Positions 13,622 through 60,359 of a DNA stretch of 64,000 nt are shown piece after piece. Source of the stretch: Candidatus Altimarinota bacterium (GTDB taxonomy: Bacteria > Patescibacteriota > Gracilibacteria > UBA4473); the NCBI GenBank assembly GCA_020631075.1, contig JAHDHX010000002.1, forward strand, positions 131,462 through 195,461, read 5' to 3'. The position numbers and the translations under genes are program-made. Numbering within the stretch: position 1 is the first letter of the stretch; every line of letters begins with the position of its first letter. The notes beneath the pieces were generated by a model. The model saw only the letters and a list, made by a program, of their open reading frames with translations. It made no database searches and was not told where the DNA came from.

Positions 13622-13663
13622 CTGCTCAGTATAGCACAATTGAAGTTTACAAATCAATGGAGT

Positions 13664-32647: not shown

Positions 32648-35167
32648 ATGGCAGACCACACCGTCGGGAGTGAGCAGGAAGATGCGCCGCTGGGCCCTGT
32701 GCCAGCGGTGCTGGCCAACCCGCCGCGAGCGGCTGTGTCAGACGGTAGCCCGAGCTGGGATGTGAACCCACCACGGCCCGTCGAAGACGACACCGACGAC
32801 AGTGAAGAGGCCGTGGTGGCGAAGACACTGGGGGAAGAAGGCGCGCTAGACGACACGGTGGTGGCCGCACCAGTGGGAGAAAAACCGAGTGTGTGGAGCC
32901 GACTGTGGGGGAGCAAAAAGAAGCCAGAGACTGAGGCCAAGACAGCGAGCCATGAGACTGTCACGCACGTGGGGGCGGCGATGACTGACCCTGCGGTGGA
33001 GCAGGTGTTGGCGGAGGTGGAGCAAGAAAATGATGAAGCGGTGGGGATGCTGGCGGAGCCAACAGGTGGGCAGGGGGACGTGCGGCTGAGTGAGGCTCCG
33101 CAGGGGGAAGCGGCAGAAAAAAGTGAGGCGGAGCATGAAGCGGGGGCGCGGGTGAAGATAACCAATGGGGAGACGCCTGGGTCGCCGCAGCACTCGATGC
33201 TGGAGCGGCTGAAGCACAAGTGGTCGGCCCATGTGGAGAAGAACAAGCAAAACGCCCAGAGCCGAGCGGCGGTCAAAAATGGCGTAGAGAAGCTGGCCGA
33301 TGCAGCGCGGCCGACTGACCGACCGCTGACGGAAGAGGAGCAGATGCAGGCGTTTTTTTTGGATTTCGAGCCGAAGCGTGACCGTAAAAAACTGACCAAG
33401 GCGCTGCGCAAGAAGATCATCGAGGCGGAGAAGCTGTACCAACAGGGGACGATCTCGATCAAGGACCTGGTGGCGCCGACGTCGATGGAATGCAAGTCCT
33501 TCAAGACGACACTCAACGGGCAGTATGTGCAGAGCTTTTATGTGACGGCGTATCCGCGGTTTGTGGAGCCGAACTGGCTGAGCTCGATCATCAACTATGA
33601 TGCGACGATGGACATTTCGATGTTTGTGTACCCAACGGAAAGTGCGAAAATAATGCGGGTGCTGCAACGCCGCGTGCTGGAGATGGTCACAACGCGCAAC
33701 ATGCAGCGTCGGAAGGGGGCGATCGCTGACCCTGGGCTGGAAACGGCGCTGGAAGACGCGGAACGACTGCGGCGTGACTTGCAGAAAGGCACGGAACGGT
33801 ACTTTCAGCTAGGGATGTATTGCACGGTGTATGCAGACACGGAGGAGAAACTGAAGTCGATCATGGAGCAGCTGAAGACGGTGCTCTCGGGCCAGATGGT
33901 GCTGACGCGCAATGCGGACTTCCGCACGGAGCGGGCGTTTAAGTCGACGCTGCCGCAGGCGACTGACCTGCTGTATGAGGTGCGGAACATGAACACCAGT
34001 CCCCTCTCGACGACGTTTCCGTTTGTGTCGAGTTCGCTGACGTCTGACGAAGGGATTTTATACGGACTGAACCGTCACAATAATTCACTGATTATCTTTG
34101 ATCGCTTCCAGCTGCAGAATGCAAACTCGGTTGTCTTTGCGGCTTCGGGGGCGGGGAAATCTTATGCGGTGAAGTTGGAAATATTGCGTTCGCTGATGAC
34201 GGGGACGGACGTGATCGTGCTCGACCCTGAAAACGAGTACCAAAACCTGACCCGTGCGGTGGGGGGGACGTACATTAACATCTCGCTGAACTCGGAGCAG
34301 CGGATCAACCCGTTTGACCTGTCGCTGCCGTATGACGCGGCTAATGCGAAGCCCGGTGACCTGTTGCGGGAAAACATCATTAACTTGATCGGGCTGCTGA
34401 ACATCATGCTGGGGAAGCTGACCCCGCTGGAGGAAGGACTAATGGATCGGGCGTTGTTTCAGACGTATAACCTCAAAGGGATCACTCCTGAAACGGTTGA
34501 CCCGACGATGTACGCCATGCCGACGATGCTCGACTTGCAGAATGTGCTGACGAGTATGCAGGGGGGGCGTGACCTGGCGCTGCGGCTGGAGAAATTTACG
34601 CGGGGAACCTTTGCGGGGTTGTTTTCTAAAGACACGAATGTGAATCTGAGCTCGGGGTTGGTGACGTTTTCTATTCGTGATCTGGAAGACCAGTTGCGGC
34701 CAGTGGCGATGTATATCTTGCTGAATTTCATCTGGTCGAAGGTGCGCTCGGACATGAAGCGGCGGATCCTGACGATCGATGAGGCGTGGAACATCGTGCA
34801 ACACGAGGACAGTGGCCGTTTCTTGCATAACCTCGTGAAGCGGGCGCGGAAGTATTACCTCGGGGTGACGACGATCACCCAAGATGTGGAGGACTTCATG
34901 GAGAGCCCATGGGGCAAACCCGTGATCACCAATGCGGCGATGACGCTGCTGCTGCGGCAGGCGCCTTCGGCGATGGACCGACTGGAAAAGGTCTTTAACC
35001 TGACCCAGGGGGAGCGGTACTTGCTGCTGAATGCGGGGCTGGGGCAGGGGCTTTTCTTTGCGGGGAGTCAGCACGTGGCGGTGCAGGTGATCGCCAGCTA
35101 TGGCGAAGACAAGCTGGTGACGACCAACCCGCAGGAGGTGCTGGAGCAGCGGCAGGCGGCGGCTTAG
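32648..35167 (+). CDS. VirB4/TraC-family type IV secretion ATPase with long acidic N-terminal extension
   Basis: VVFAASGAGKSYAVKLEILRSL (Walker A), DVIVLDPENEYQNLTRAVGGTYINISLNSEQRINPFDLS, RRILTIDEAWNIVQHEDSGRFLHNLVKRARKYYLGVTTITQDVEDF. Confidence 0.92.
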   Translation: MADHTVGSEQEDAPLGPVPAVLANPPRAAVSDGSPSWDVNPPRPVEDDTDDSEEAVVAKTLGEEGALDDTVVAAPVGEKPSVWSRLWGSKKKPETEAKTASHETVTHVGAAMTDPAVEQVLAEVEQENDEAVGMLAEPTGGQGDVRLSEAPQGEAAEKSEAEHEAGARVKITNGETPGSPQHSMLERLKHKWSAHVEKNKQNAQSRAAVKNGVEKLADAARPTDRPLTEEEQMQAFFLDFEPKRDRKKLTKALRKKIIEAEKLYQQGTISIKDLVAPTSMECKSFKTTLNGQYVQSFYVTAYPRFVEPNWLSSIINYDATMDISMFVYPTESAKIMRVLQRRVLEMVTTRNMQRRKGAIADPGLETALEDAERLRRDLQKGTERYFQLGMYCTVYADTEEKLKSIMEQLKTVLSGQMVLTRNADFRTERAFKSTLPQATDLLYEVRNMNTSPLSTTFPFVSSSLTSDEGILYGLNRHNNSLIIFDRFQLQNANSVVFAASGAGKSYAVKLEILRSLMTGTDVIVLDPENEYQNLTRAVGGTYINISLNSEQRINPFDLSLPYDAANAKPGDLLRENIINLIGLLNIMLGKLTPLEEGLMDRALFQTYNLKGITPETVDPTMYAMPTMLDLQNVLTSMQGGRDLALRLEKFTRGTFAGLFSKDTNVNLSSGLVTFSIRDLEDQLRPVAMYILLNFIWSKVRSDMKRRILTIDEAWNIVQHEDSGRFLHNLVKRARKYYLGVTTITQDVEDFMESPWGKPVITNAAMTLLLRQAPSAMDRLEKVFNLTQGERYLLLNAGLGQGLFFAGSQHVAVQVIASYGEDKLVTTNPQEVLEQRQAAA

Positions 35168-35196
35168 AGGGAAAGGTTTCTGAAGAATTTTCCTAT

Positions 35197-35228
35197 AAAA
35201 AACCACTCTGGGGACAGAGTGGGTTTTT
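35197..35228. terminator. Bidirectional intrinsic terminator between virB4-like gene and trxA
   Basis: AAAAAACCACTCTG-GGGA-CAGAGTGGGTTTTTAA between convergent genes. Confidence 0.88.
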
Positions 35229-35248
35229 AATCAGAAACTTAGAATAAA

Positions 35249-35560
35249 CTAGGCGCTGAGCATCTCTACCAGTTTTTCTTTGGGCTGGGAGCCGACGGCT
35301 TCGCCGATCAGTTCGCCGTCTTTGAAAACTTTAAAAGCGGGGATGGACATGACGCCGAACTCTTGGGCGAGCTCTGGGTCGGTGTCGACATCAATCTTGA
35401 CGATTTTTTGACCTTCGGTGAGGGTGGGGGTGAGCTCCTCCAGCAGGGGGAGCATGGCCTGACAGGGGCCACACCACGGGGCGAAGAAGTCAACGAGGAC
35501 GGTGCCTTTGAAGTCTTTTACTTCGGCCTGAAAGGTGTCTTTGGTCACGACGGTTGCCAT
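35249..35560 (-). CDS. trxA: Thioredoxin
   Basis: VLVDFFAPWCGPCQAMLPLLEEL...KIDVDTDPELAQEFGVMSIPAFKVFKDGE. Confidence 0.96.
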   Translation of the reverse strand: MATVVTKDTFQAEVKDFKGTVLVDFFAPWCGPCQAMLPLLEELTPTLTEGQKIVKIDVDTDPELAQEFGVMSIPAFKVFKDGELIGEAVGSQPKEKLVEMLSA

Positions 35561-35686
35561 GGGAAAGAGTGAAAAATGGTAGATAAGTAGTACGATTCTA
35601 GTTTACCCCACGTGGAGCGTGGGGGCGAGCAAAATGGTGGATTGTGGGTAGGCTGGACTACGGAGGGCTTTGAAATTTTGGATTTT

Positions 35687-36307
35687 TTACTGCGAATACC
35701 GTTGTTCGAGCATTTTGAGGAAGGTGAGGCACTCTTTGGCCTGGGTGGAGGCGGGGTGGTGCTGGACGACGGACTCGAAGGATTGTTTGGCGAGGGTGAA
35801 CTGTTGGTCGTTCATGTAGCAGACGCCGAGGTCGCAAAGGATGTTTGGGTCGGTGTCGCTGAGCGTATGGGCGCGCTCCAGCACGGCGATGCCGCGGGCA
35901 GAACGGTGGGAATTATAAAGAGACCAGCCGAGGCAGCGGAGGATCTCGGGGTGGTTTGGGGTCAAGCTGTCGGCGGCGGTGAGGGAGGCGATGGAGCGAG
36001 ACCACTGCTGGTGCAGGGAATACAAAAAACCCAGCAGATAGTGCGCGTTGGCGGAGCTGGGGTTGAGGGTGATGGCGTGGGTGAGGGCTTTGGTGGCGGC
36101 GTCGAGTTGCCGCAGGGAGAGGTAGCAGTCACCGAGCTCTTCGTAGGCCTCGAAACAGGTGGGGGTGTCGGTGATGACGGAGTTGAGTAGCTGGATGGCG
36201 GTGTCGTAATCCCCCGTCAGTTTGGCGTCTTCGGCCTGGTCGAGGGTGCTGAGGACGAATTCGCTGTAGTGGGTCTGGGCGGGGGTGGAGATGGGTTCGG
36301 TGGTCAT
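35687..36307 (-). CDS. TPR-repeat protein
   Basis: Repeated units CFEAYEELGDCYLSLRQLDAATKALTHAI, SANAHYLLGFLYSLHQQWSRSIASLTAA, DPNILCDLGVCYMNDQQFTLAKQSFESVV. Confidence 0.85.
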   Translation of the reverse strand: MTTEPISTPAQTHYSEFVLSTLDQAEDAKLTGDYDTAIQLLNSVITDTPTCFEAYEELGDCYLSLRQLDAATKALTHAITLNPSSANAHYLLGFLYSLHQQWSRSIASLTAADSLTPNHPEILRCLGWSLYNSHRSARGIAVLERAHTLSDTDPNILCDLGVCYMNDQQFTLAKQSFESVVQHHPASTQAKECLTFLKMLEQRYSQ

Positions 36308-36476
36308 GGGGTGGAGTTTGGGGGGGAGTTTTTTTTGGGGAATCCGCTGGCTTCTCTGGCTGAGGGATGTGGGGGTTGTATTTCATTGTACCCGAAAATG
36401 AAGGGGAAGTGAACCCTGAAGTGGGGGAAAATGAGACGTGAGCAAACGACCAGTCCCCTCCTCTGGGTGGTGGGTG

Positions 36477-39400
36477 CTATTGGCTCGGGTCTGTGACGGT
36501 GAGGGTGACGGTCTGCTGGGTGTGCTGGTCGAGGGTGTCGCGCAGGTGCAGGGTGAACTGGGTGCTGGTGCCAGTAGGCAGACCCGGGTGCTGGAAGTAG
36601 AGGGTGGAGTCGAAGGTGGTGGTGGGGTTGCCCAGTGATTCGCTGTCAGGGGGACGGGTGAAGGCGGGGTGGGCGGGGTCGAAGCTGGGGGTGTCTGAGT
36701 TGGCTGGTTTTTCAGGTGACTCGGGGCTCAATGGTGCGGTCAACTGGGCGGTGAGGGCGCGGAACAGTTGGCGGAAACTGAAAGCCCTGTCGGGGGTGTC
36801 AGTGGTGGTAGGCGCCAGAGCGAGGCTGTCGGGCAATGGGGTGGGGCGGGGCTGGCCGAAGCGGTCAAGCGATGGTTCTGTAGTGGAGGCGAAGTCGCGG
36901 TCGTTGGTGAAGTTGCCGTCGGCGTCAGTGTCGACGGTGGGGTCGAGGTCAAACCAGGCGTCTGCTAAGCCAGCGGTGGCGACCGAGGGGCGGGCGTCGA
37001 TGACGAAGGGGGTGTCGGGGGGAAGCTGTCTGGCCGTGGGGTGGGCAAACTGGGCCGTGAGGGGTTGGTCAGTGGGGGTGGGGTAGGGGTCGTGCAAGAA
37101 CTGGAACCGTGGGAAGCTGCTGACGGGGCCACGCTGGGCGGAGAGGGCGCCATACCACTTGGCGGGGGGCAGCAGGGCGAGGTGGCGGATGATGTCGGTG
37201 AGTTGGTCGAAGTGATAGAGAACGTAGGTCTGGTGCTGGTCGATCTGCACTTGGGTGCCGTCGAAGAGCTCGATAACCACTTGGTCCCCTGCCCCGAGTG
37301 CGAAGGCGGTGCCGTGCGGCAGGGCGAGATTAGGCCTAGGGGGGATGGACTCAAACTGCTCGGGGGCGTCGAGGGCGATGTGGCTGACTTCCCCCTGGGT
37401 GACGCACAGTTCGGCGTCTTCGATGATGGTCTCTTCGCCTTGCTCGATGACGATGGTGAGGGTGTCGAAGGGTTGGTCCGGGCGCTGGGGCACGCGCACG
37501 GTGACTTCTGACCGTGGGGCGAGCCCCAGCAGGGTGTGGGTGCCTGAGAGGAAGGGTTTGGGGAGGTTTGGGTCAGCGCAAGCGGACGGTGACTGGGTGA
37601 GCAGGGGGTGCTCAGGCGGGGCGATGATCTCGGGCGTGCCTGTCAGTGAAACGAGGCGCGAGGTGAGGGGGCGGATTTCATACAAACGGGGGGGGCGACG
37701 GACGAGGAAAGCCGTGCGGTCCCAGCGGTCGGAGCTGCGCACCGTGCCGCTGGTAGGGGTGTCGGTGGGGGTGTCACCCGTGAAAAAGTCGTAGAGCGGG
37801 GCGAGGAAGGGCCGGCTGGGTTGCTCGGGCGAAGGTGTCTGGCTGGTGGAGGGGGTGGCGGCCCATTCGTAGGACATGTCGGGGCGGTCGGAGATGGTCC
37901 ACTCGTAGTAGGCTGTCTGCGGGTCTAGCCTGTCAAGGCGGAGCTGGGCGCCGCGGCTGGTGGTGGTGAAGTCGAAGACTTGGGCGGGGGCAAACTGTGA
38001 CGCGAAGCGGGCAAATGACCAAAATTCAGGTGAGTCGCTGGCGACGGCGTTGGGGCTGAGTGGCTCGGCACTGGGGGGGGCACCTGCCCGACCCGCGAGC
38101 AGGTCACCGTAGCGCTGGCCACCGCCGAGACGGGGGCCCCACTGGTCGGGGCAGGACTTCAGATAAAGGTCAGACCCGATGAAGTGAAAGGTGGGCGTGT
38201 CGGCGTAGGGACACGGCTGGCTGGGGGGGGCGGCGCAGTCGTGCAGGCTTTGGTCGTAGTCAGGGTTGGCGGGGGTGGCCCCGAGCGACTGGCCGACCGC
38301 GGTGGGGAAGGACGTGAGTGGCTGGGCGAGGCCCGTGCAGGGGTCACACTGGGTGGTGCCAGCGGGCAAGAAGACCTGTGACTCTGGGGTGGGGAGGGTG
38401 ACTGACCCTGTGTCGAGGTCGATGCCGAGGCGGGCCATGGCGCGGTCAGAGAGTTCGCTGGGGGTGGAGGAAACGTCGGTCAGACGCTCGGCGCCGAAGG
38501 CTTGGGCGGCTTCTAAGATCTCGGGGGGCATGGTGCTGGCGACCAGTTGGCTGATCTCGGGCGGGTGGGCGGCCAGCTGGTGCATTTCCTCGCCCCAGTG
38601 CTGCGGCGTGGTGAACTGGGCCAGCTGCGAAAGCAGGAGCTGGCTCTGGCCGAAATTAATGTCGCCCTGACGGATGCGGTCGAGGCGAGAAGCAAAGTCA
38701 GTCGTGGCGGCGAGCACCTCCGCCGAGGGGGGGACATCGCCCCAGGCGGTCAGGGAAATGGTCTGGGTAGTGGGGCTGGCAGGCGTGTGGCTGAGGCGGG
38801 GGGTGTCGACGGGCAGGCAGTCAGGTGCGCCGCTGAGCGTGCTGAGGTTGGACAGGGTGGTGACGGAGCAATCCATGGTGGATTGGACCTGGGTGACGGT
38901 CTGGTTGAGGGCTTCGAGGGAGGGGGCGAGGTCGTACTTTAGGGTGGTGACGAGGTCTTTTTTGGGGACTTTGGGGACGTCGAATTTCCACGCGGTGGGG
39001 CTCCAGTCGAGGGGGATCATGCTCGTGCGGTTGGTGATGGACTCAATGTGGGAGTTGAGGTCCCACTCGGGGACGGGCATGATGCCCTTCAAGATGAAGC
39101 ACACGAGCTGCAGGAGTGTCTCGAGGACGTCGATGATTTTTTCGAGGGGTTCGAGGAAATTGGGGATGTCGAACGGGACGGGGGGGATGGTGGGCAGGCT
39201 GGGGAGGTCAACCGTGGGGAGGTCGAGGGTGCTGAAGTCGGGGACGCTGATGGCGGGCAGCTGCGGTGCGGAGGGCACGGTGGGAAAGCTGACGGCGGGC
39301 AGGACGGTGTCGAGGTCGAATGAGCTGGGGAGGCTGGGGGTCTGGGCCTGGGCGGTGGGCAGCAGGGGGTGGGCCGACTGGGCGACGGTGAGACGCAGGG

Positions 39401-42400
39401 GGTCGGTGTAGGACAGGAGGCGGCTGAGCTCGCTGACTTTCAGGGTGGGGAGGGGGACATTTTTGGGGAGGGTGGGCTCGAGCTGGGGGGTGATGGTGAC
39501 GGGGTTGAGTTTGATCTCGGGGATGGTGACCTCGGCCCCTGCGGTGACCTGGCTGAGGTCGAGGACGAGGTTGGGCAGCTGGGGCATGGGGATGACGGGG
39601 AGTTTGATCCACCCAAAGAGAATGCGGATGATGAACTCGTCGAGTTTGCCTTTGCCCACGGCGCAGCCGTGACAGTTGGCCCCGAAGGCATTAAAGACGG
39701 CGGGAATCTTGCCCACGGTGGACATGATCTGCATGACGTCGCTGCGCAGGGTCAGCCATGACTGGAGGTCGTCCTTGAGGCTTTTGAGATACTTCCCAAA
39801 GAAGTCGCTGATCTGCTGGTCGTTTTGGCTGAGGGTTTGCTTAATCTCGCGGATGCGCTCGACGAGCTGGGGCAGTGAGCGGGCGGCTTGGTCAAGGGAC
39901 TGAAGCTGGGTGGCGGTGTCTTGGAACTGGGTGGGGAGGGTGTCGAGCTGGGCCAAGAAGGTGTCGCTGTCCGACAGGATGCGGTCGCGTCGGGCGGTGA
40001 CGGCGTCGAGGATGGCGGTGCGGGCGTCAGACAGTTGCACCTGGGCGAGCTGCTGCGGGCTGGCCACGGTGAAGTTGGGCAGGGGGCCCGCGAAGCGGGG
40101 CTGGGCGGCGAGGAAGTCGGACAGGAGCTGCTGGGCGGCGAGCTGGTCACGCAGCTGGGTCAGGCCCTGACTAGACTGTGACTGGAAGATGTCGCGGCTG
40201 GATTTGAACTGTTGACTGAAGGTTTTGAGAGCTTTGACGTGCTGGCGGATGTCGCGTAGCTGTGACTGCAGCACGCTGGGGTCGATCTGGGGGTAATTGA
40301 TCGGGGTGGGTTTGAGCGTGAGGTCAATGAAGGGTGACTGGCTGAGGGAGTCGAGGCTGAGGGGTTCTGAAGTGGAGCTGCTGCTATTGCTGGAGGACGC
40401 TTCAGGGAGGCTGGGTTGGATGACTTTGAGCTCGGGAAGGTTGAAGTTGCTGAACTCGGCCATTTGGTCCTTGACCCAGGTGGTGATGAAGTCAAACGAG
40501 CCAACGGCCGTGTTGCGCGGGAGGGTGGTGGTGCCGCGGACGTTTTTGGGTGGTTGGGCTTGCAGGGTGCTGTGCTGGGTGGCCCACGGGTCGGCGTGGC
40601 CGAGGGTGTCATTGGCCAAGAGGCCAAGCGAGCACTGCTGTGGCCCCGTGGCCGAGGCCGCCAGTGGCTGGGTGCTGACCCCGCTGTCAGGCGGGGTGTC
40701 GGCCCCAGCGAGTGGGTCGGGGCAGGACTGCGGCAATGACGGCACCAGTGGGATGGCGAACGCCACGCAGAAGGGGGCGAAGAGGGGGGCAGAGAAGCCG
40801 TTGAAGTTGGCGCCGCAGAGCCCCATGCCCAGCTGCAATGAGGTGGTGGGACTGATATAGAGCCGAAAGAGGCTGGCCAGATGGGTGGGGGCAAACGGCG
40901 GTGGTGGCACCCAAAAGACAGGGACGCCTGGGCTGGGGGCGGAAGGAATAGTGATGGGGGGGAGGTAGAACGAGCGGTTGCCTGGGGCCAAAAATGAGTA
41001 GGACGGGAGGGCGAGTGACCAGCTGCATTCGCCGACGCAGGTCTGGCTGGCGCGCTGGGTGCTGGCGAAGGTGGCCCCGAGGGAGTCGGTGGCTGTCTCG
41101 GGGTTGGAGCGGGGGGCGGAGTCAAAAAAGTCGGGGATGGTGTCGCCGTCGGAGTCTTCGGCCAGGGCGGCGGCGAGATATTCGGCTTCCTCCTCGTCGG
41201 TCATGGACGCGTATGGCTCGATGGTTTCCTTGTCAAAGGGGACGGGTGCGGTGACAGGGCGGTAGGCTTCGGTGCTGGCGTAAAACTGGTAGAGCGTGGT
41301 GGAGGTGGGGTCGGCGATGTCAGTCTGCCACGGGATGACCACCATGTCGCCGCCGTCGGGGTGTGACTGCACCGACAGCACGGGGGTGGGCAGGTCGCTG
41401 GAGCTGGGGGTGAGGAGGGTGAAGCTGATCTGGCAGGTCTGGTCAGGGGTGAGGGTGAGCCCGCTGGCCCAGGCACTGCCCCACTGTGGCTGGACGGTGG
41501 CGACGGCGTCGGCCCCACAGCCGCTGAAACTGACGGCGGTGGGGTCGACGCGACGCTGGCCAAACTGCGGGATGATGAGCTGCAGGTCGGTGACGGGGGT
41601 GTCGTTGGACAGGGTGATGAGGCCTGCGGTGCCTTGCAGGGTGAGCTCGGCGCTCTGCCATTGGGTCAGGGGGACGGGGATGAAGGTCAGCTGGCGGTCA
41701 GGGTCGGTGGGGTCTGGCACTTCCACAAAGCGGGAGTCGCGCACGGCGAGGGTGGTTTGCTGGCTGAGATCGGGACTTGTGACGCTGAGGTACCGCAGCT
41801 GGGGGAAGAGCTGGTCGAGGTAGAGGCGGTCGATCTGAGAGGGGTCTTCGACGTTGGTGGGGAAATCACGGATGGCGGGGGCGTACCACTCGGTCTCAGG
41901 CAGGATGGGGAGGCGGTTTTGGAAGCCGTCTTTGGTCCCTTTGGCGAGATAGAGCTGGTTGTCGATCGTCTGCATGATGATGTCGAGCCGGCCGTCGCCT
42001 GTCAGGTCACGGCCTTTGATCTGGGCGACGTCGCCGTATTTACTCAGGGTGGTACTTTGTTTTTTGTATTTCTTTTTCTTTTTTTTGTATTTTTTGATCT
42101 CGCCGTTGTCTTTGAGTTTGACGTAGTCTTGGTCACCGTCGCCGTCGTTGTCATAAAACACGACGCCTGACTGGCGGCGGATGGTGGGGGGCGGAGTGGT
42201 GAGGGGGCGGGCGTAACTCTCGCTGATGGGGGGGGCGGAGTCGGCCTGGGTGAAGGTTTCGATGAGGTCGGGGGGGGACCACTCCCCTGCCCTGCCCTGG
42301 GTACTGATGTACAGAGCGGGTTGGCTGGTCAAAAAGGCGAGGTCGAGGTCGCCGTCGTTGTCAAAGTCGCCACCTTTGAAGCGGGTGACATCAGGCGGGA

Positions 42401-48494: not shown

Positions 48495-48706
48495 GAGAGC
48501 GAGAGGAGGAGGGATGTCTGTGGGGGAAGGGGCACTGGGGGGCTGTGGTCACGCTATGCGTGAGGAGCAACAGGCCAAAAATGCCAGCAGAACCATCACA
48601 CAGAATGGTAGTCCGTGGGGGTGGCTCTGGCGAGGGGGCACGACAAAATAGCCTCGCGTTCAAAGGTAAAATGTGGCGAAGCGTCAGGTGGGAATTTGTG
48701 CAGACG

Positions 48707-51700: not shown

Positions 51701-54625
51701 GAGCATGATGCGGTCGGCGATCTGTGACAGTGACCAGCCCTTGGGGGGGTAGTCGGGGTCAAACGTCCAGGGGACTTTTTGCAGTTGCTTGATGAGGTCG
51801 GCGCGGTTTTGGGCTTTGTAGAGCTTTGACCGCAGGGCAAACTGCTCGTCAGGGGTGAGGGCGGTGTAGCGAGCTAAGATCTGGTTGATCTGGAACTCAC
51901 TGATGGAGGTCATGTACGCATCATGGTTTTTTTGGTTGATGTTGATCCGCTTCTGAATTTCCTTGAGGCGCCGCCGCTTTTTTTCGCTTGATTCGCCCTG
52001 GGCTTCGATGTCGCGGCTGTCGATGGTGCGCATATGTGGGCGTTGCCACTCGGCAAAAAATGCTTCGGCTTTCTCACGCTGGCCGACGAGGCCCATCTTG
52101 CCCATGAGGGTGTCTATAATGCGGTAGCGGTAGTAGCCGACACCACCGTCGATGAGTTCGAGCATATCCTGCCCGAGGCCGAAATTTAGCTCGTTGTAGT
52201 GACGATCCTTCTGCATGGCTTCGAGCAGTGCCGCGGATGACATGACCCGATCAAGGGCTTTGTACCACTGTGCAAACTGGTCTTCGGGGTGGGTGATCTT
52301 GGGCAGGCGGATGCTGGCCAGGGCGTCGTCGATGGCCTTGACCATGACGGTGCGAAACGAGCTGACCGTCTGGCGGTGGGCCTGGCTGAGTTGCATCCCC
52401 CCTGGGGTGGCGGCCAAAAACTCATGGATCTGTTGCTGCTCGGTGGAGGCGGGCCCTGGCTGGACGGGGTTGGCGCCGTTGTGCCCGTCGTCTTCCAGCA
52501 AGAGCACTTGCATATCGGCGGCCATCAGGCGGCCGTTTTGCAGGCGGGAGTTGAGCCCGCGTTCGTATTGTCGTTTGGTTTTGAGCGCGAGGTCGTGCGG
52601 GTCGGCCAGCAGGGCGGCAAACTGTTTGCGGTTTTCGTTTTCGTCCAGATGTTTCCAGACTTCGGTTTGTGACTCTTTCAGTTGTTTTTTGAGCGTGCCG
52701 AGCTCTTCGTTCATCCCCTCTTCGTAGGCGAAATTACCTTTTTCTTTGATCTTGGCTTTGGCTTCGTTTTGCTTCTGGGTGTGGGTCTGAAAGGTGGATT
52801 GAGCGTTTTGGATGGTCTGAAAAAACGTCGTGCGGCGGATAGACCGTGAGCCAAGCTGGCTGACGCCGTTGACAAACTCGGCCATGGCTTCGTTTTGTTT
52901 CTTGTCCCTTAAGGCCTGGGCGGCGGGGGTGTCTTCGCCTGCTTCGAAGCGATTCGTGAGGGCGTCCCAGCGTTCTTGAAACTGGTGGGCGAGGTCGTTG
53001 ACGCGGTCGACTTCGTCGGTGGTGGGGGCGTCTTTGGGGTTGAGGACGTTGGCCCCCGGGGCCGACGCCAGCGGGTAAAAGATGCGGTGGGTGAACTCGT
53101 GCAGGTTGGCGCCGTTGGCGGCGTAGACACTGACGTTGACCCCGGTGGGGGTGCCAGCGGCGTCGAGCTGGGCGACTTCGATGACATTGGTGGTGTTAGG
53201 CGGGGCGTAGTTGGCCGTCGGTTGCATCTCACGCAGCAGCACACGACGTGACTGGGTGACGTCGGCGCGTGAGGACCGATAGGTGTCGGCGTCTTCGTCG
53301 TTTTGGTTCTCAGGCTGGCGGAGGAAGACGTTGATTTGGTCTTCTTCACGGCGGTCCATTTCGGTTTCTTGTTCGGCGATCTTTTCCTTCAGGTCGGCGA
53401 TTTTATTTTTGAGGGGTTGGGGGACGTCGAGCCACTGGGACTCGTTGTAGTTGTGGGCGGGTGCTCTGAACTCTGGGTGGATGAGGATGTCACGCAGGGT
53501 GCGCACATGGGCGGGGAGCAGAACGGGGCTTTTTTGCGCCCAGCCGAGGAACTGGGCGGCGTTGCCACGGATGACGAGATCTTCGAGGCGGTGTCGGGCC
53601 TCGGGGTAGCGGGTGGAGCCCATCCGAAAGCCAGCGAACTCTGCCTGGGGGGACTCCATGAAGTCGTCGAGGAGGTCCCACGCGAGGAGGTAGTTGGGGT
53701 TGTTGGCGTTTTGGCTGTAGGTGGCGCGCTGCTGTGGGCTGAGCTGACTGTCAACGGGGGGGAGGAGTTCGGCCACGACCTCTTGGGTGAGGTCTTCCCA
53801 GTGGGCGAAGTCACGGTAGATGCCCCAGTCGTGACTGCTGGGGAAGAGTTTGCGGGCTTCGAGGGTGAGGAGCTTTTCGGTGTTGGTCAGGCCTGGGGGG
53901 AGTTCGGGCGGGTGCTCACCGCTGATGATTTGCTCGACACTGCGCGCGGGGGCGTTGCGACGCTTAAGGTAGCGGTCGAGGTAGGTTTGGGTCAGGGTGA
54001 TGATAGCGTCGCGGGCTTGTTCAAACTTGCGGTCGATCGACCCTCGGGTGCTTTCGCCTTTCAGTTTGACTTCGTTGATGATCCCGCTGCGCTCGATGTG
54101 CCGATAGGCCTGAATGAGGCGTGTGGCTTGGCTGACATCCCACGTGGAGACGTCTGACTCCAGCGCGGTGCTGAGCATTTGGGTTTCTTTGTCCAGGCGG
54201 GCTTTGATCTCTGTCCGCATATGTACGGGAAGAAGATTGCGCAGGCGGAAGTTGCCGTAGATGTCGAAGAGGATGCGCGGGGGGACGGCCTTTTGGCTGG
54301 TTTGCGCGACGGAAATGTAGTAGCCGGTAAGGTCGCGGAACTTATAGATGAGGTTTTGCCGCTCAGTGTCGGGCATGGTGGGGTCACGCAGCTGGTCGGT
54401 GAGCTCGTAGAGGTGTCGGGTGCGGAAGTAGAGTGGGTTGTCGAGCGGGGTGTCGGTTTCTTGGCGCTGGCCAGCATTTTCGAGGTTGTCGGCGTCTATC
54501 GTGCGGGGGGTGTTGGCGTTGGGGACGCCCGTGACGACGTGCTCGTCGCGGTAGTCAACCATGTGCACCCGAGTGTGGGGGCTCAGGCGGGGGGTGAGGC
54601 GAAGGCCGACAAGAAGCTGCACCAT
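48707..54625 (-). CDS. Very large hypothetical protein (1972 aa) with zincin-like HEFTH motif
   Basis: Uninterrupted 5.9-kb ORF; ANLHEFTHRIFYPLA ... NEAMAEFVNGV; no signal peptide recognised. TATAAT 11 nt upstream of ATG. Confidence 0.87.
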   Translation of the reverse strand: MVQLLVGLRLTPRLSPHTRVHMVDYRDEHVVTGVPNANTPRTIDADNLENAGQRQETDTPLDNPLYFRTRHLYELTDQLRDPTMPDTERQNLIYKFRDLTGYYISVAQTSQKAVPPRILFDIYGNFRLRNLLPVHMRTEIKARLDKETQMLSTALESDVSTWDVSQATRLIQAYRHIERSGIINEVKLKGESTRGSIDRKFEQARDAIITLTQTYLDRYLKRRNAPARSVEQIISGEHPPELPPGLTNTEKLLTLEARKLFPSSHDWGIYRDFAHWEDLTQEVVAELLPPVDSQLSPQQRATYSQNANNPNYLLAWDLLDDFMESPQAEFAGFRMGSTRYPEARHRLEDLVIRGNAAQFLGWAQKSPVLLPAHVRTLRDILIHPEFRAPAHNYNESQWLDVPQPLKNKIADLKEKIAEQETEMDRREEDQINVFLRQPENQNDEDADTYRSSRADVTQSRRVLLREMQPTANYAPPNTTNVIEVAQLDAAGTPTGVNVSVYAANGANLHEFTHRIFYPLASAPGANVLNPKDAPTTDEVDRVNDLAHQFQERWDALTNRFEAGEDTPAAQALRDKKQNEAMAEFVNGVSQLGSRSIRRTTFFQTIQNAQSTFQTHTQKQNEAKAKIKEKGNFAYEEGMNEELGTLKKQLKESQTEVWKHLDENENRKQFAALLADPHDLALKTKRQYERGLNSRLQNGRLMAADMQVLLLEDDGHNGANPVQPGPASTEQQQIHEFLAATPGGMQLSQAHRQTVSSFRTVMVKAIDDALASIRLPKITHPEDQFAQWYKALDRVMSSAALLEAMQKDRHYNELNFGLGQDMLELIDGGVGYYRYRIIDTLMGKMGLVGQREKAEAFFAEWQRPHMRTIDSRDIEAQGESSEKKRRRLKEIQKRININQKNHDAYMTSISEFQINQILARYTALTPDEQFALRSKLYKAQNRADLIKQLQKVPWTFDPDYPPKGWSLSQIADRIMLDQTWTHNRNQYRNGGQVEVKNERGEVTDSFYVPGSEALAEAGEKTRRMREKIQTTTKRLTADLAALQTIVREVNQGKRTYDKEKYQKIFENTVKSFTRAGVDLRSAIRDMYFICRDLLPRDMLHTLFIKNANTLYGHIGRYGDKLAQMGQTPHYVFGDESPFIECPKYLNMFDHVFDFETGFYAQEADLRNRQLAQHARGLKVLKNLEFDLDETIQKDEFREKAEEKNRKFRESYQLLVEESQPIIELLERDIKKAQRHHDPKWFSDRYGLSVAQASREVDRLKHSIDRYATLQDEFSDPQFFAQWLGRYNTDPQTRAEAVTQLAGWEVAVDLTDKALDQVAKIRHYLDEHGLALRAPGTKFRDIIKDKVQNEWGEWMNRGGKSFSINELVELVKKCIEFQETQFNRQKEARVGTIGYGIFGDKFTWGKEFFRMMEESEEKRFKEFETQHADQDISANRDALYKTRDVDEARGLINVLRDKGILMWDDPGLWKTLERFQTQVKFRKNDLTNLKYAEIQAKVEKAIGLIWSPQVFRDWETSMDGKAKEKQSSYDREFGSYEDNGSVRTEILADMLSRWEKGDTENIDPARFEQFIRASFEKGKMNGQPDQRFYYLIMGMATTDPRGIPLLSRNAAIRMNDQFLGGFPVLEFWTEGGPKKDGLLVDESVPGAESRPWNFHDFKCWKEMLGDDETGFNVTKEPVKAKMKQFWYSVVLQSDKARGRVMRNMRMSDEKADHDEAMSQFPFFPPDQIVQMLERNNNGKDKYTPDYYRMLFHGFRGYAVGLQKHIQDYDERFGQTQWWAVKKKELLTDFGRSLRAGMTGMMTMQGNHSGSGSNPTVFSEEMFEYDRGYIEDASKLSRSRDDIFTMFRNVMSESNLDDGKRTEYENYMQTKGNKYGSQWRNINKKLGPEFIDGVQKMISEDADEGAGALYTNTEAIQKALESFVTERTLPGEEPVSVVETATGGGRGGGSLHIAGAPSRGSVEYTDAIERVTAGV

Positions 54626-54636
54626 GGGGTCTGGGT

Positions 54637-54642
54637 ATTATA
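54637..54642 (-). promoter_or_regulatory. Extended -10 (GTGGTATAAT) of the 1972-aa protein gene
   Basis: Minus strand CCGTGGTATAATACCCAGACCCCATGG. Confidence 0.6.
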
Positions 54643-54672
54643 CCACGGTGGGCGGGGTGGGGCTAGGGGGGA

Positions 54673-57090
54673 TTACAGCCTGACATCAGTGATATTGCCG
54701 CTCGCGTCCACGCTAAACTGGATGTTTGGGAAGTGTCCGATTGCTTGGGTGAGTGCGGTTTTGAAGTAGTTGTTATTTTGATCTTCGAGCAGTGTTTTGA
54801 AATTTGCTTTGACGTTAAATGTATCGTCGAGATTCATGGCGTTGAGTTTGTCGCGTACGATGTTGGCGTTGTCACCAGCCAGTATCGTGGTCATATCATA
54901 ATCCTTGGAGGCGTTTGGGTTGGTGGGGTCGCCTTTTGTGAGGGTAAATGTGTTTGCGTTTTGTGAGGCTCGTGGAGCGGTGACGCCAAAGGCGCTGACA
55001 AGCTCGGCGTGGGAGCTGTTTGCATTCACGCCAGTGCTGGCCATGGGGGTGTTGGCGAGTTTGCCGGTGTTGCTGAGCTGTGTGTAGAGTGACTGTGTGG
55101 CTGTGCTGCTTCCCATGACGGCATTAACGGCGTCATTGCTGTTTTGGTTGTAGACATCGTTGTAATTATTGATCGTGATCTCATTACTGTTGGGGTCGGC
55201 CTTGATAGTAACGCTGTTGCCGCTGGTGTTGACCTGTGGGCCAGTGGGGGTTTCATTGGGTTTTATCTGGTCGTTGAAGGGGTCGTTCGCGTTGCGGCCA
55301 GTGATGCCCGCCAAGGCTGCTTTGAGGTTTGAATCACTACTCCGCGGGTTGGTAAGAGTTTTGTAATAGCTTTGAAGGTTTTTATCGAGTTTTGACTGGT
55401 CGATGTTTTTGAGGGAGGCTTGGACTTCTTTGGAACGGAGTTGGTCGAGATTGCTGACGTCTGCCAAGGCGGTGTTGAAGTATTCTTTTTGTTTGTCTTG
55501 TGACTTGGTGGCACCTTGGTTGAAATCGGTGATGGAGCGGTCGAGCTTATTAATGCTGGCACTGCTGAGATTTGCTCCTTCGTCAAACAGCCCTAAGTCG
55601 GCAAATACTTTGCGTTGACGGTCTCTTTGGTTTGAGCGGTAGGCGCTGTCGACCTGTGACGGGAAGGACAGGAGGTCGCCGAGGGAGGCGTCGGCGGTCT
55701 TGGTCGGGTCGCGGGGGTCAGAGATGCGGAACCAAGGACGGTCCAACAGTGAGACGTCGAAAGCGAATTTGCCCAGTTGCTCCGCGCCTGACTTGATCTG
55801 GTCGGTGATGTTTTCGATGAATTTGGCGCCCTTGAAGGCGGTGAAACTGGCGGTCCAAAACACCATGACGGTCAAAATCTGCCAGATGAACCCATGTGAA
55901 CCCCGCGAAAAGACCCCTGACCCGACCTGCACAAAGGTGGACTCGGTCGAGAGGATGGTGGTGTCGGCCATGGCGGACATCATCACGAAGGAGACGGCCA
56001 GGGCGAGACCGATCTTAATGGGCATGATGAGGTAATTCAGGATGTCGGCGGAGCTGAAGTCGCCTCCGCCGTCTCCCAGCCCGAGGATGCCCATGGCGAT
56101 CAAAGCGGGTGAGGCGACCATGATGAGCCACAGCACCACCGTGCGGATGAGCAACGCCGCGAAGGTCGCCCCCAGCACCACGACGTAGGCCGCGGCCATG
56201 ATGGTGGAAAATAGGACGTCGTTGGCGACCTCTAGCCACGAGCCGAGCTTGGCCGAGAGGGCGGGCATATGCTGGAGCTGCTGGAAGTAAACCGCGAAGG
56301 CGAGGAAGAGATTATGCGTGGTGGAGGAGGTGCCGCGGTAGGCGGAATCGGCGTTTTCGGGGTCGATCTTAAACCAGCAGCTCTGGGCTTCGACGTTGTC
56401 GGCCTTGCAGTAGTGGGCGTTGAGCCACTGGCTGAAGGTCTTGCAGTCGTTTGTCTGGATGGCGGTGAGCTGATCAACGGTGTAGGTGCTGCGTTGGGGT
56501 TCGGGTGAGTAGCAGGGGTCGCCGTTGACGTCGGTGGCGAAGGAGAGCATATCGCCGACGTCGGCGGCGCCTTTGGCTTCGATAGCCGTGTCGGCCACCG
56601 AGATGACCGCAATGGTGACCACGTGCACGGCGTCAATGATGACACGGAAGCCCAGCAAAGAGAAATTAATAGCGATCATGGAGAGGATCACCTTGGGGAG
56701 CATATCTTTGATGGTCCACTTGGACTCGCCCGCGATGCCGATGCCCGCGAAGAGGTTGGTGAAGGCGAGCACGACCATGAGCAGCACGAAGCCGACGTTG
56801 GTCAGGTTGCGGATGACGACCCACATGGGGCGGATGCCCTCCATGGCGGCCTCACCCGTGAGGTACTCTGTCCCCATGAGGCTCCCGCCGAGCTCGATGA
56901 GCTTGAGGGCGAGGAAGGTCATGAGATTAATGAGCAGGCTGAGGAAAAGGGCCACGGACTGCAAGATGGTGCTGTCGGTCTGGGCGTAGGCCACCGTGGG
57001 GAGGAGCACCAACGCCAGTCCCCCACCCCAAAGGGCGTGGGCACGTCGGCCCCAAGGCCAGAGAGCGCGAAGACGCGAAAGCAGCTGCAT
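54673..57090 (-). CDS. TrbL/VirB6-like polytopic membrane protein
   Basis: Signal-like N-term ALVLLPTVAYAQ, many TM helices, conserved-looking PALIAMGILGLGDGGGDFSSADILNYLIMPIKIGLALAVSFVMMSAMADTTILS and ILTVMVFWTASFTAFKGAKFIENITDQIKSGAEQLGKF; start set at MQLLSRL. Confidence 0.72.
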   Translation of the reverse strand: MQLLSRLRALWPWGRRAHALWGGGLALVLLPTVAYAQTDSTILQSVALFLSLLINLMTFLALKLIELGGSLMGTEYLTGEAAMEGIRPMWVVIRNLTNVGFVLLMVVLAFTNLFAGIGIAGESKWTIKDMLPKVILSMIAINFSLLGFRVIIDAVHVVTIAVISVADTAIEAKGAADVGDMLSFATDVNGDPCYSPEPQRSTYTVDQLTAIQTNDCKTFSQWLNAHYCKADNVEAQSCWFKIDPENADSAYRGTSSTTHNLFLAFAVYFQQLQHMPALSAKLGSWLEVANDVLFSTIMAAAYVVVLGATFAALLIRTVVLWLIMVASPALIAMGILGLGDGGGDFSSADILNYLIMPIKIGLALAVSFVMMSAMADTTILSTESTFVQVGSGVFSRGSHGFIWQILTVMVFWTASFTAFKGAKFIENITDQIKSGAEQLGKFAFDVSLLDRPWFRISDPRDPTKTADASLGDLLSFPSQVDSAYRSNQRDRQRKVFADLGLFDEGANLSSASINKLDRSITDFNQGATKSQDKQKEYFNTALADVSNLDQLRSKEVQASLKNIDQSKLDKNLQSYYKTLTNPRSSDSNLKAALAGITGRNANDPFNDQIKPNETPTGPQVNTSGNSVTIKADPNSNEITINNYNDVYNQNSNDAVNAVMGSSTATQSLYTQLSNTGKLANTPMASTGVNANSSHAELVSAFGVTAPRASQNANTFTLTKGDPTNPNASKDYDMTTILAGDNANIVRDKLNAMNLDDTFNVKANFKTLLEDQNNNYFKTALTQAIGHFPNIQFSVDASGNITDVRL

Positions 57091-57096
57091 CTGGGT

Positions 57097-57102
57097 AGTA
57101 TA
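57097..57102 (-). promoter_or_regulatory. -10 TATACT, 6 nt before ATG of the TrbL/VirB6-like gene
   Basis: Minus strand GTGTGGTATACT-ACCCAG-ATG. Confidence 0.65.
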
Positions 57103-57146
57103 CCACACGGAGGGGGCGGGATGAAAGTGCTAGTTGGAGTGATCCC

Positions 57147-59843
57147 TTATTCGCCCTCGGCGGTGGAAGAGGCCTGACTGATGCTGGTGACGCGGTGGTC
57201 GGCCTGCTGCCCGCGGAAGAAATTCTTAATATTTTTGAGCAGGCTGAGAGGGTTGAGCTTACTGCCGGTGTGGACGGGCTTCATGGTGACGTCGTTGCCA
57301 CTGACCTTGAGGGCGAAGTATTGCGTCTCGCCGTTGGGGGTGCGCCCGCTGAAGACCGCCGCGCGGTCGTACTTAAACCGTTGGCCGATGAAGTTGGTGA
57401 TCTGGGCGGTGAAGCGCTGGAGGTAGGCGGAGGGTTCCCGCAGGATGGAGAGGCCAGTGCCTTCGGTCAGACCCTCGATGAGGCCGCTGTTGACGGCGGC
57501 GGTGTGGGACTGGGTGCGGTTGAGGGTGGTGCTGAAGGTGTTTTTGAGGCTTGACGCCGTGGTTTCCTTGAGGTTGGTGAGGGTGTGGTCTTGCCCGCCG
57601 ATGGTGAAGGTGTATTTTTGACCGAGGAGGGGGTCTTCTTCACTGTCGCGGAGGTTGCGGATGAGGCTGACGGCGTCGTCGGCGACGTTGAATTTGGCTT
57701 TCTCTTGGGCGGCGTCCATGTCTAGTTGCCAGGCGTTGTCTTTTGACGCGCGGTCGACTGCGTCCCAGAACTGTTCGTTGGCTTGGCTGATGGTGACGTT
57801 GTCGGTTTCGTTGAACCCGAAGCCGACGCGGTTGCCGTCTTGCTCGAGGTTTTCGTTGGCGAGGAGGGCTTCCCAGAGGGCTTTGAACCGTGAATGGGGT
57901 TTCTCGCCTGCGTTGGGCACGGCGGCCAACTGGTCCATAAGGCGGTCAACGGTGGGCTGGGTCAGCACGCCACCCGCCACCATGGCGGTGAGGAGCTTCT
58001 GCATGAATTTGGGTTCGCCGAGGCTCTGACCAGCGTCCGTCTCAAACCGACTGCGGGCCTCATGAAACAGCTGGCGGATGGTGCCGTGGTTTTTGATGGG
58101 GAGCTCTGAGGGTTTGAGAGATTTGAGATCTTCGATCTCGGCCAGGCGTTCGGCGCGACGCTCAAACCCCGCGTGTAGGCCGTTGGTCGCCCAATAGAGC
58201 GCCCCTGCGGACAGACGAATGAACCCCATGGTGCCCAGGAGAATGCCGGCTCCGTTGAGCCCCCCGAGAAACTCGCCCTGTTGCATGATCTGCGGGGTCT
58301 GGGTGAGCTGTGAGATCTGGCTGAGGGCGAGGTGTTGCTCTTTGCCTTTCAGCTTGTCGGCTTGCTCTATCAGGACGGCGAGGTGCTGGGTGCTTTTCTC
58401 ACCCACGGCGTCGCCGAGGTCGTACCAGATTTCGGGCGCGTGGGGGTTGGGCTCGCCTGGGTCGGGGGCGAGGAGTATGTTTTCGATCAGGGCTTGTTGG
58501 AAGGCGAAGTAGTGGTCTTGGCTGAGTGAAATGTGGGCCTGAAACAAGCGGGTGACCTGGTCGAGGGTGTTGACCTGGGCGGTGTGGGGGCGGTCGGCGG
58601 GTTGGCCGCTGGGGGTGGTGACGGTGGCAAACAGCCCTGGGTTGTGCGCCATGGTCAGCTGGTGCGATTGCAGGAAGGTGCTCATCTGGCGGTAGTGGGT
58701 GGGGGTGAGCGGTTTGCCTTCGGCCAGGTGGTCAAAGATGGCAGTGGTGTCTGGCGGGGCGAGTGAGCGCAGCTGCTGGGCTTGGTGCTTGACCCAGCCT
58801 TCGGGGGTGCGGCGTTTGTCTTCGGCGGTTTCTATGCCGAAGTAGCGAAACAGGCCGTCGCGTGTTTCGCCCGCCACTTCCCAAACGTGGTCGAGGAAGG
58901 GTTGGTCTTCGGTGAAGGAGCCGTAGATGGCTTTGCCGAGGTGCTCGAAGGGTTGGTAGATGGCTTGGCCGATCTTCTGTGCGGCCCAAGTGAAGGCGCC
59001 GCCTTCGGCTTGTTTCCAATTGAGCCCTATACCCCCGAGCTGGGTGACGATGGCGACGGAGGCGGCGCCCCAGAGCAGGTAGGTGGGTTTATTGATCGCG
59101 CCTGAGGACTCCAAGCTGCGGCCGAGTGCGTACCCCAGCCAGGCCGTGAAGGCCACCCCGTAGAAGTCGCTAGTCTGGCCCCAGCCGCCCTCGACCTGGC
59201 TGATGATCTGCTCCGCGAAGGTGGGTGACTCGGTCAGGGCTTGTAGGTCGGCGATGGGGTTGGTGACGGCGGCGTCGGCAAAGATGGCTTGGCCAGCGGT
59301 CAGTACGTGCTGACGGAGGGCTTCGCGTTGGGCCAGGGCCGTGGTGCCAGCCCCTGGGCGGAGCGGTGACTGCAGCTGGCGCATGGCGAGGACATACTCC
59401 TCGGGGGTGAAGCCGTGAGCGTTGAGGCGGGCTTCCAGCGCTTCGCGTTGCTGTTGCAGGAGCTGCTGCAGGCGCAGGGCTTCGGCTGACTCAACGGCTT
59501 GGGTGGCGGCTTCAGCGGCTTGGGTGCGTTGCTCGGGCGTGCGGGGGGGGCGGGAGGGTGATGCGCTGGGGGTGTCTTGCGGTTGGCTGAGCCAATGGGC
59601 GATGACTTGCTGGTCGACGTGGCCGTCGAGCCGTCGGGGGGCTCTGGGTGAGTGCTGGGCGAGGTCGCTGAGTTCGGCTTGGGTGTGTTGGATTTCTTGG
59701 GCGGCTTCGACGTCGAAGTCGGTGATTTCGGGCTGTTTGTAGCTGTCGGGGGATAGATGCGTGCTGCCAATATTCCCCAGCAGTCGGGGGCTCGGCCAGA
59801 GGGCTGAGTGACTGGGTGATGGGGAGGAGGGCAGAAGTTGCAT
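57147..59843 (-). CDS. Large hypothetical protein (898 aa) with internal hydrophobic segments
   Basis: Intact ORF; TM-like YGVAFTAWLGYALG, YLLWGAASVAIVTQLGGIGL, GAGILLGTMGFIRLSAGALYWA. Confidence 0.85.
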   Translation of the reverse strand: MQLLPSSPSPSHSALWPSPRLLGNIGSTHLSPDSYKQPEITDFDVEAAQEIQHTQAELSDLAQHSPRAPRRLDGHVDQQVIAHWLSQPQDTPSASPSRPPRTPEQRTQAAEAATQAVESAEALRLQQLLQQQREALEARLNAHGFTPEEYVLAMRQLQSPLRPGAGTTALAQREALRQHVLTAGQAIFADAAVTNPIADLQALTESPTFAEQIISQVEGGWGQTSDFYGVAFTAWLGYALGRSLESSGAINKPTYLLWGAASVAIVTQLGGIGLNWKQAEGGAFTWAAQKIGQAIYQPFEHLGKAIYGSFTEDQPFLDHVWEVAGETRDGLFRYFGIETAEDKRRTPEGWVKHQAQQLRSLAPPDTTAIFDHLAEGKPLTPTHYRQMSTFLQSHQLTMAHNPGLFATVTTPSGQPADRPHTAQVNTLDQVTRLFQAHISLSQDHYFAFQQALIENILLAPDPGEPNPHAPEIWYDLGDAVGEKSTQHLAVLIEQADKLKGKEQHLALSQISQLTQTPQIMQQGEFLGGLNGAGILLGTMGFIRLSAGALYWATNGLHAGFERRAERLAEIEDLKSLKPSELPIKNHGTIRQLFHEARSRFETDAGQSLGEPKFMQKLLTAMVAGGVLTQPTVDRLMDQLAAVPNAGEKPHSRFKALWEALLANENLEQDGNRVGFGFNETDNVTISQANEQFWDAVDRASKDNAWQLDMDAAQEKAKFNVADDAVSLIRNLRDSEEDPLLGQKYTFTIGGQDHTLTNLKETTASSLKNTFSTTLNRTQSHTAAVNSGLIEGLTEGTGLSILREPSAYLQRFTAQITNFIGQRFKYDRAAVFSGRTPNGETQYFALKVSGNDVTMKPVHTGSKLNPLSLLKNIKNFFRGQQADHRVTSISQASSTAEGE

Positions 59844-59852
59844 ACGGAGGGG

Positions 59853-60359
59853 CTAGAGCTGCAGGGCGCGAGCCCAGATCTGGGTGAGGGATTCGCGGCG
59901 GTCGGTCAGTTCGGTCAGGCCCGCTTGGCCGAGGTGCTGCCGAAACCACTCGGGGCTGCGGGAACCCATCTGGACGGGGATAGTGTAGCGGTGGTATTTG
60001 GCCTGGATGTCAAAGTAGATGACGTGCACGGCGGGCTGGTGGACGATCCAGTAGCCGATGACGTCACCCAGTGGGATGGCGTCGGCGTCTATCTGCAGGG
60101 TGGTGTCATACACAAAGACGTAGTGCGTCTGGTGCCCTTCGTGGTGGTAGTAGGCCCAGAAGGCGATGATGATGGCAAAGCACAGAGCGAGGATGAAATC
60201 CCCCTGCCACAGGGCCGAAAGGATGATGCCAAACACGACCGAGCAAAAGCCCACCAGCCACCAGAGGCCCCGTGGGTGGGGGTGATGGTCGTAGGCCTGC
60301 CACGCGCAGATGATCTGGCCGTGGTATTGCAGGGGGAGCGGGGTGGTGGGGGCGGGCAT
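59853..60359 (-). CDS. Small membrane protein (two TM helices), unknown
   Basis: ~168 aa from ATG (MPAPTTPLPLQYHGQ); GLWWLVGFCSVVFGIILSALW, DFILALCFAIIIAFWAYYH; 9 nt upstream of the 898-aa gene. Confidence 0.75.
   Translation of the reverse strand: MPAPTTPLPLQYHGQIICAWQAYDHHPHPRGLWWLVGFCSVVFGIILSALWQGDFILALCFAIIIAFWAYYHHEGHQTHYVFVYDTTLQIDADAIPLGDVIGYWIVHQPAVHVIYFDIQAKYHRYTIPVQMGSRSPEWFRQHLGQAGLTELTDRRESLTQIWARALQL

What the first reader, a model, noticed from the sequence alone, without database searches (positions are those of the whole stretch)
32648..60359. Candidate type IV secretion-like / surface machine built from VirB4, TrbL/VirB6-like and giant unknown proteins
A VirB4 ATPase (32648-35167) lies near a minus-strand block with a 4005-aa secreted protein, a 1972-aa unknown protein, a TrbL/VirB6-like protein, an 898-aa protein with TM segments and a small two-TM protein. 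I see no relaxase, coupling protein or other canonical VirB/Tra genes. The layout suggests a reduced, divergent machine for DNA uptake, attachment or secretion of the giant protein. Function and completeness are inference.
Basis: inference. Interest (0 to 1): 0.7.

Follow-up and report, generated by a model that had tools for sequence, protein, structure and literature searches.

The report
Missing VirB6 locus of Gracilibacteria
Tiny host-dependent bacteria (Gracilibacteria) were thought to have a DNA/protein-transfer machine without its membrane channel protein; this stretch of genome holds that channel protein, highly diverged and moved to a separate gene cluster together with a new, nearly universal small membrane partner.

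Summary
The genes are real and at the stated coordinates. The 811-aa protein is a diverged VirB6/TrbL. A profile from Gracilibacteria copies finds proteins elsewhere in the phylum, and in 16 of 20 such loci they sit beside PrgI, TrsD or VirB4; profile-profile E = 7.6e-30, and 5 of 12 of those proteins match Pfam TrbL/VirB6. It occurs in 137/145 class genomes, although a 2025 survey called VirB6 scarce or absent in Gracilibacteria.

The small two-TM protein (about 168 aa) is a nearly universal companion (131/145), upstream of VirB6 in 14 families and inside a PrgI-TrsD-VirB2 pilin operon in another. The 1972-aa protein is a partial companion (85/145), next to VirB6 in 8 families. The 898-aa protein is conserved by position only. 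The 4005-aa giant has its own Sec-type signal peptide, is a class-wide family (112/145) usually encoded elsewhere, and is missing where VirB6 remains; it is not shown to be cargo.

The genome also has PrgI, TrsD, VirB2-like pilins and VirD4-like ATPases, all outside the window. Best reading: half of a scattered, rearranged Gracilibacteria type IV secretion system with lineage-specific subunits. Substrate and direction of transport unknown.

The parts
32648..35167 (+). VirB4 ATPase (839 aa; about 190-aa acidic N-terminal extension; Walker A ASGAGKS, Walker B LTIDEAW)
   Evidence: Pfam TraG P-loop 1.9e-23; NCBIfam CD1110-family VirB4 7.5e-111, above cut-off; homologue in 59 of 60 relatives; motifs read in the sequence
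59853..60359 (-). Small two-TM protein with a C-terminal beta-rich (PH-like, inferred) domain, about 168 aa: class-wide T4SS companion, called S196 in the text (196 aa if the upstream ATG 60443 is used)
   Evidence: Profile A1 hits 131 of 145 class genomes; upstream of VirB6 within 5.5 kb in 54 of 69 same-contig genomes, 14 families; PrgI-TrsD-pilin-S196 operon in family f14
57147..59843 (-). 898-aa protein with hydrophobic segments; fast-evolving gene slot between S196 and VirB6
   Evidence: Same position and similar size in relatives, but mean column identity 13% and no significant phmmer hit for this member; no Pfam
54673..57108 (-). VirB6/TrbL homologue, 811 aa: signal-like N-terminus, 7-8 TM segments, about 370-aa hydrophilic C-terminal extension ('extended VirB6' type)
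   Evidence: Profile hits 137/145 class genomes and, elsewhere in the phylum, proteins beside PrgI/TrsD/VirB4 in 16 of 20 loci; hhalign to those 7.6e-30; 5 of 12 of those match PF04610 TrbL/VirB6; fold search lists R388 VirB6 chains in the top 10
48707..54625 (-). 1972-aa cytoplasmic-looking all-alpha protein with a conserved C-terminal domain (residues about 1350-1800); partial T4SS companion
   Evidence: CTD profile in 85/145 class genomes; directly after VirB6 in 27 of 34 same-contig genomes, 8 families, and directly after S196 in 10 f5 genomes; no Pfam, PHROG or significant fold match
36477..48494 (-). 4005-aa Sec-exported giant surface protein (conserved N-terminal 650-aa domain without known family, Ig-like repeat-rich middle, FG-GAP repeats near 1996-2053)
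   Evidence: Signal peptide and N-terminal domain conserved in 9 homologues; FG-GAP 9.1e-10; N-terminal-domain profile in 112/145 class genomes; neighbour of the 1972-aa gene within family f1 only

Best explanation
The block is one half of a chromosomal type IV secretion system of Gracilibacteria whose genes have been scattered. VirB4 (window), PrgI/VirB3 and TrsD (contig C49), VirB6 (window) and VirB2-like pilins would form the inner-membrane engine and pilus, as in the T4SS that is essential for epibiotic growth in the related Saccharibacterium S. epibionticum. The 811-aa protein is the VirB6 channel subunit, so diverged that earlier HMM surveys missed it. The small two-TM protein is a lineage-specific subunit that most likely binds the VirB6/VirB3 inner-membrane platform from the cytoplasmic side with its soluble domain (inferred). 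The 1972-aa protein is probably a cytoplasmic helical scaffold or substrate-handling factor of the same system (inferred). The 4005-aa giant is a separately Sec-exported surface protein, probably an adhesin that holds the partner cell while the T4SS works (inferred), not a T4SS substrate. Shown: homology, gene order and co-occurrence. Inferred: assembly, cargo and direction of transport.
For: VirB4 identity and presence in 59/60 relatives. VirB6: class-wide 137/145; profile reaches proteins elsewhere in the phylum that sit beside PrgI, TrsD or VirB4 in 16/20 loci; hhalign Prob 99.8, E 7.6e-30; those proteins match Pfam TrbL/VirB6, best 4e-7, and their profile's top PDB sequence is TrwI/VirB6 of R388 (E 0.041); fold search of the window's own model puts three R388 VirB6 chains in its top 10 of 350,542, though with non-significant E 1.8-2.7. 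Within the class, L059 carries VirB6-PrgI-TrsD-VirB4 in one row. S196: 131/145, almost always single copy; adjacency to VirB6 (14 families), to the 1972-aa gene (f5) and to PrgI-TrsD-pilin (f14). Other T4SS parts in the own genome. Essential T4SS in S. epibionticum: PMC10633639.
Against: No direct sequence match of the window's 811-aa protein to Pfam TrbL, and the fold matches are individually non-significant. No VirB8 or VirB1 was looked for or shown. The genes lie at three or more places in the genome. The 1972-aa profile finds it in only 85/145 genomes and often unlinked. Nothing shows that the proteins interact, or what is transported.
Confidence: 0.8

Rival explanations
1. The 811-aa protein is a VirB6 homologue, but the S196-VirB6-1972 block is a separate VirB4-independent membrane channel or attachment machine, and the VirB4/PrgI/TrsD genes serve something else.
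For: In most Gracilibacteria the VirB6 block and VirB4/PrgI lie on different contigs or far apart; the 1972-aa protein has no T4SS relative.
Against: VirB4, PrgI and the VirB6 profile each occur in nearly all genomes of the class; L059 has them in one operon; in f14 S196 is in the PrgI-TrsD-pilin operon.
Confidence: 0.1
2. The machine secretes the 4005-aa giant: a dedicated transporter encoded next to its substrate.
For: In about ten family-f1 genomes the giant follows the 1972-aa gene directly.
Against: Sec-type signal peptide in all 9 homologues; the giant is usually encoded elsewhere in the other families and is not found in families f5 and f7, which keep VirB6 and S196.
Confidence: 0.05
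3. The 1972-aa protein is not a machine part but the main translocated effector of the T4SS.
For: Large, no TM or signal peptide, encoded beside VirB6 or S196, N-terminal part divergent with a conserved C-terminal domain.
Against: No effector-type domain found; not detected in 60 of 145 genomes that mostly keep VirB6, which would also fit a lost or diverged scaffold.
Confidence: 0.15

Closest known systems
Patescibacteria T4SS (MPF_FATA-like; Quinonero-Coronel et al. 2025, PMC12102498)
   Same: VirB4, TrsD, PrgI and VirB2-like pilins in the chromosome, no relaxase; TrsD and PrgI unlinked from virB4 in Gracilibacteria, as here
   Different: That survey found VirB6 scarce or absent in Gracilibacteria; here a class-wide VirB6 is found in a separate block, with a new small subunit and a large helical companion not described there
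Essential T4SS of Ca. Southlakia epibionticum (Wang et al. 2023, PMC10633639)
   Same: Gram-positive-type composition with pilins and no recognised relaxase
   Different: One contiguous cluster (SEML1_0006-0019) there; scattered here, with S196 and the 1972-aa protein
R388 VirB6 (TrwI)
   Same: Polytopic inner-membrane protein; remote sequence match through the relatives elsewhere in the phylum and weak fold match
   Different: 342 aa versus 811 aa with a hydrophilic C-terminal extension ('extended VirB6' as described in PMC12857230)
Giant surface proteins of Vampirococcus lugosii (PMC8080830)
   Same: Very large surface proteins in a related CPR lineage, proposed for host attachment
   Different: Homology to the giant family here was not tested; no T4SS link was reported there

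Membership tests
Type IV secretion system | VirB4 ATPase with TraG-type P-loop domain | tested here: met
   Walker motifs
Type IV secretion system | Polytopic VirB6/TrbL protein | tested here: met
   Via phylum-wide operon linkage and profile-profile match; direct Pfam match of the window protein not met
Type IV secretion system | VirB3/PrgI | tested here: met
   PF12666 2.1e-12 on contig C49, beside a TrsD-like protein
Type IV secretion system | VirB8 | not tested
   no search run
Type IV secretion system | VirB2-like pilin | tested here: met
   15 PF18895 matches, 14 over cut-off
Type IV secretion system | Coupling protein VirD4 | tested here: met
   4 TraG-D_C matches over cut-off, all unlinked; role in this system unproven
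Conjugation system | Relaxase | tested here: not met
   PF03432 absent; other relaxase families not searched
MPF_FATA Patescibacteria clade | VirB4 phylogenetic position | not tested
   Best NCBIfam model is the CD1110 VirB4 family; no tree built
VirB6/TrbL family | 4-6 or more TM segments and W..R..N / K..LPK..NFS / R..LW..SP motif set shared with VirB6 proteins in VirB4 operons | tested here: met
   alignments A6 and A10
PrgI/VirB3 family (for the 168-aa protein) | Profile similarity to PrgI | tested here: not met
   hhalign Prob 1.8; weak VirB3 matches in 5 of 25 members, best E 0.0015; a separate PrgI exists

The most novel reading that the evidence does not exclude
Gracilibacteria run a remodelled T4SS in which VirB6 works with two lineage-specific subunits (the nearly universal two-TM protein and a very large helical cytoplasmic protein), with the 1972-aa protein possibly being loaded or translocated into the host cell.
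Probability: 0.5. Interest if true: 0.75.

Novelty: new variant of a known kind. Interest (0 to 1): 0.6.

Why it matters
The T4SS is essential for the one CPR bacterium where this was tested, yet its subunit list in Gracilibacteria had a hole at VirB6. This work fills the hole with a class-wide gene, explains why it was missed (extreme divergence plus relocation), and names a new single-copy subunit candidate that is nearly as universal as VirB6. That gives concrete targets for localisation, interaction and structure work on how CPR epibionts exchange material with their hosts.

Tried and rejected
Pfam, NCBIfam and PHROGs on the 811-, 898-, 1972- and 196-aa proteins gave nothing usable. The HEFTH motif at about residue 509 of the 1972-aa protein (zinc-protease-like) occurs only in the window's copy and was dropped. 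The giant's N-terminal domain was suspected by eye to be gingipain/C25-like: no Pfam or PDB support. S196 as a second PrgI/VirB3: hhalign negative. Fold search of the 1972-aa C-terminal domain against PDB and BFVD: only non-significant all-alpha matches. A class-wide alignment of the 1972-aa domain was too diverse for the search for related loci; the family-level one gave nine loci, named mostly Candidatus Gracilibacteria. The 1615-aa protein at 13664-18511 as a relative of the 898-aa slot: no phmmer link.

Full report
What is there. The window is G000:C5:131462-195461 of a 1.46-Mb, 50-contig genome. Its nearest named relatives are Candidatus Gracilibacteria and other Patescibacteria MAGs, and several families in its class read TGA as a sense codon. 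The row on the minus strand is S196 (about 168 aa), 898 aa, 811 aa, 1972 aa, 4005 aa, with gaps of 9, 38, 47 and 212 bases. VirB4 stands on the plus strand 1.3 kb beyond the giant, with a thioredoxin and a TPR protein between.

VirB4. It carries a TraG P-loop domain, passes the NCBIfam cut-off for the CD1110 VirB4 family and has a homologue in 59 of 60 relatives. PrgI is in 52 of the same 60. In the own genome PrgI lies on contig C49 directly before a 244-aa TrsD-like protein, as published for Gracilibacteria, where TrsD and PrgI are notable for not lying near virB4 (PMC12102498).

The 811-aa protein is VirB6. No curated family recognises it directly. A profile of 34 Gracilibacteria copies (A6) finds it in 137 of 145 class genomes and finds more distant matches in genomes of the same phylum outside the class. 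Of 20 such outside loci fetched, 16 have PrgI, TrsD or VirB4 genes on the same stretch, typically next door; the four others include one on a 5-kb contig. Profile-profile comparison of the two sets gives Prob 99.8 and E 7.6e-30. Five of 12 outside members match Pfam TrbL/VirB6, best 4e-7, and the profile's best PDB sequence is TrwI, the R388 VirB6 (E 0.041). The window protein's own AlphaFold model (mean pLDDT 73.5) gives no significant fold match, but three chains of the R388 stalk/IMC structures longer than VirB5 (so taken as VirB6) are ranks 4, 7 and 10 of 350,542 chains, with target-normalised TM-scores of 0.40, 0.25 and 0.42. Inside the class, L059 shows VirB6 (1404 aa), PrgI, TrsD and VirB4 in one row. 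Together these establish homology; the 2025 survey had reported VirB6 as scarce or absent in Gracilibacteria and suspected extreme divergence (PMC12102498).

S196. The profile of the small protein hits 131 of 145 class genomes, almost always once. It stands upstream of VirB6 on the same strand within 5.5 kb in 54 of the 69 genomes that have both on one contig, in 14 families. In family f5, where VirB6 is elsewhere, it lies directly before the 1972-aa gene in 10 genomes. In recoded family f14 it is the gene after PrgI-TrsD-pilin: HMM-confirmed PrgI and TrsD in five loci, with the pilin passing the PF18895 cut-off in the two that were scanned. No S196 hit was found near VirB6 in the 20 outside loci, so it may be class-specific. 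It is not a second PrgI. The alignment shows two TM segments followed by a beta-rich domain; the PH-like label is my inference from the pattern and from weak DUF5673/DUF6232 and bPH matches.

The 1972-aa protein. No TM or signal peptide. Its C-terminal domain (about 1350-1800) is conserved, is in 85 of 145 genomes and follows VirB6 directly in 27 of 34 same-contig genomes from 8 families. The AlphaFold model of that domain is good (mean pLDDT 78), all-helical, and matches no known structure significantly.

The 898-aa protein. A gene of 470-1000 aa fills this slot in relatives, but the sequences are nearly unalignable (13% mean column identity; close relatives only). It is a fast-evolving part or an unrelated passenger; I cannot tell.

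The giant. Homologues of 3762-4460 aa align over most of their length and share a signal peptide and a 650-residue N-terminal domain unknown to Pfam and PDB. The family is class-wide (112/145) but usually encoded elsewhere; families f5 and f7 lack it while keeping VirB6. Its link to the 1972-aa gene is a feature of family f1. A Sec-exported adhesin is the simplest reading (inference; giant proteins of Vampirococcus were read so, PMC8080830).

Limits. The genomes are mostly fragmented MAGs, so absence and non-linkage counts are upper bounds. Class-wide counts for VirB4 and PrgI come from the 60-genome set, those for VirB6, S196, the 1972-aa domain and the giant from a 145-genome set that largely contains it. 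The adjacency counts were made from positions transcribed, in which the weakest matches are not all listed. Function is untested; the only functional data are from another CPR class (PMC10633639), where the T4SS is essential and its cargo unknown (PMC11665869).

Noticed in passing
L109:2273-10930 (G000:C35, own genome): A 2885-aa reading frame begins with a signal peptide and a VirB2-like T4SS_pilin domain (PF18895 match at C35:138393-138575): a giant protein with a pilin-like head.
   Followed up: partly
G000 contigs C35, C22, C3, C7: 15 T4SS_pilin matches in one 1.46-Mb genome, several in tandem.
   Followed up: no
window:20984-23179: SecD-type protein with a PPIC rotamase domain lying before the SecDF P1 head and SecD/SecF C-terminal domain.
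   Followed up: no
window:13664-18511 and 12158-13657: 1615-aa and 499-aa neighbouring proteins without any Pfam family above cut-off (PHROGs also negative for the first); the first has a hydrophobic hairpin in its middle.
   Followed up: partly
L115:5689-10611; L146, L149, L152, L159: Two VirB6-like genes in tandem in a recoded Gracilibacteria family (f10) and in loci from elsewhere in the phylum.
   Followed up: no
window:32648-33220: The window's VirB4 has an acidic low-complexity N-terminal extension of about 190 aa that most relatives lack.
   Followed up: no
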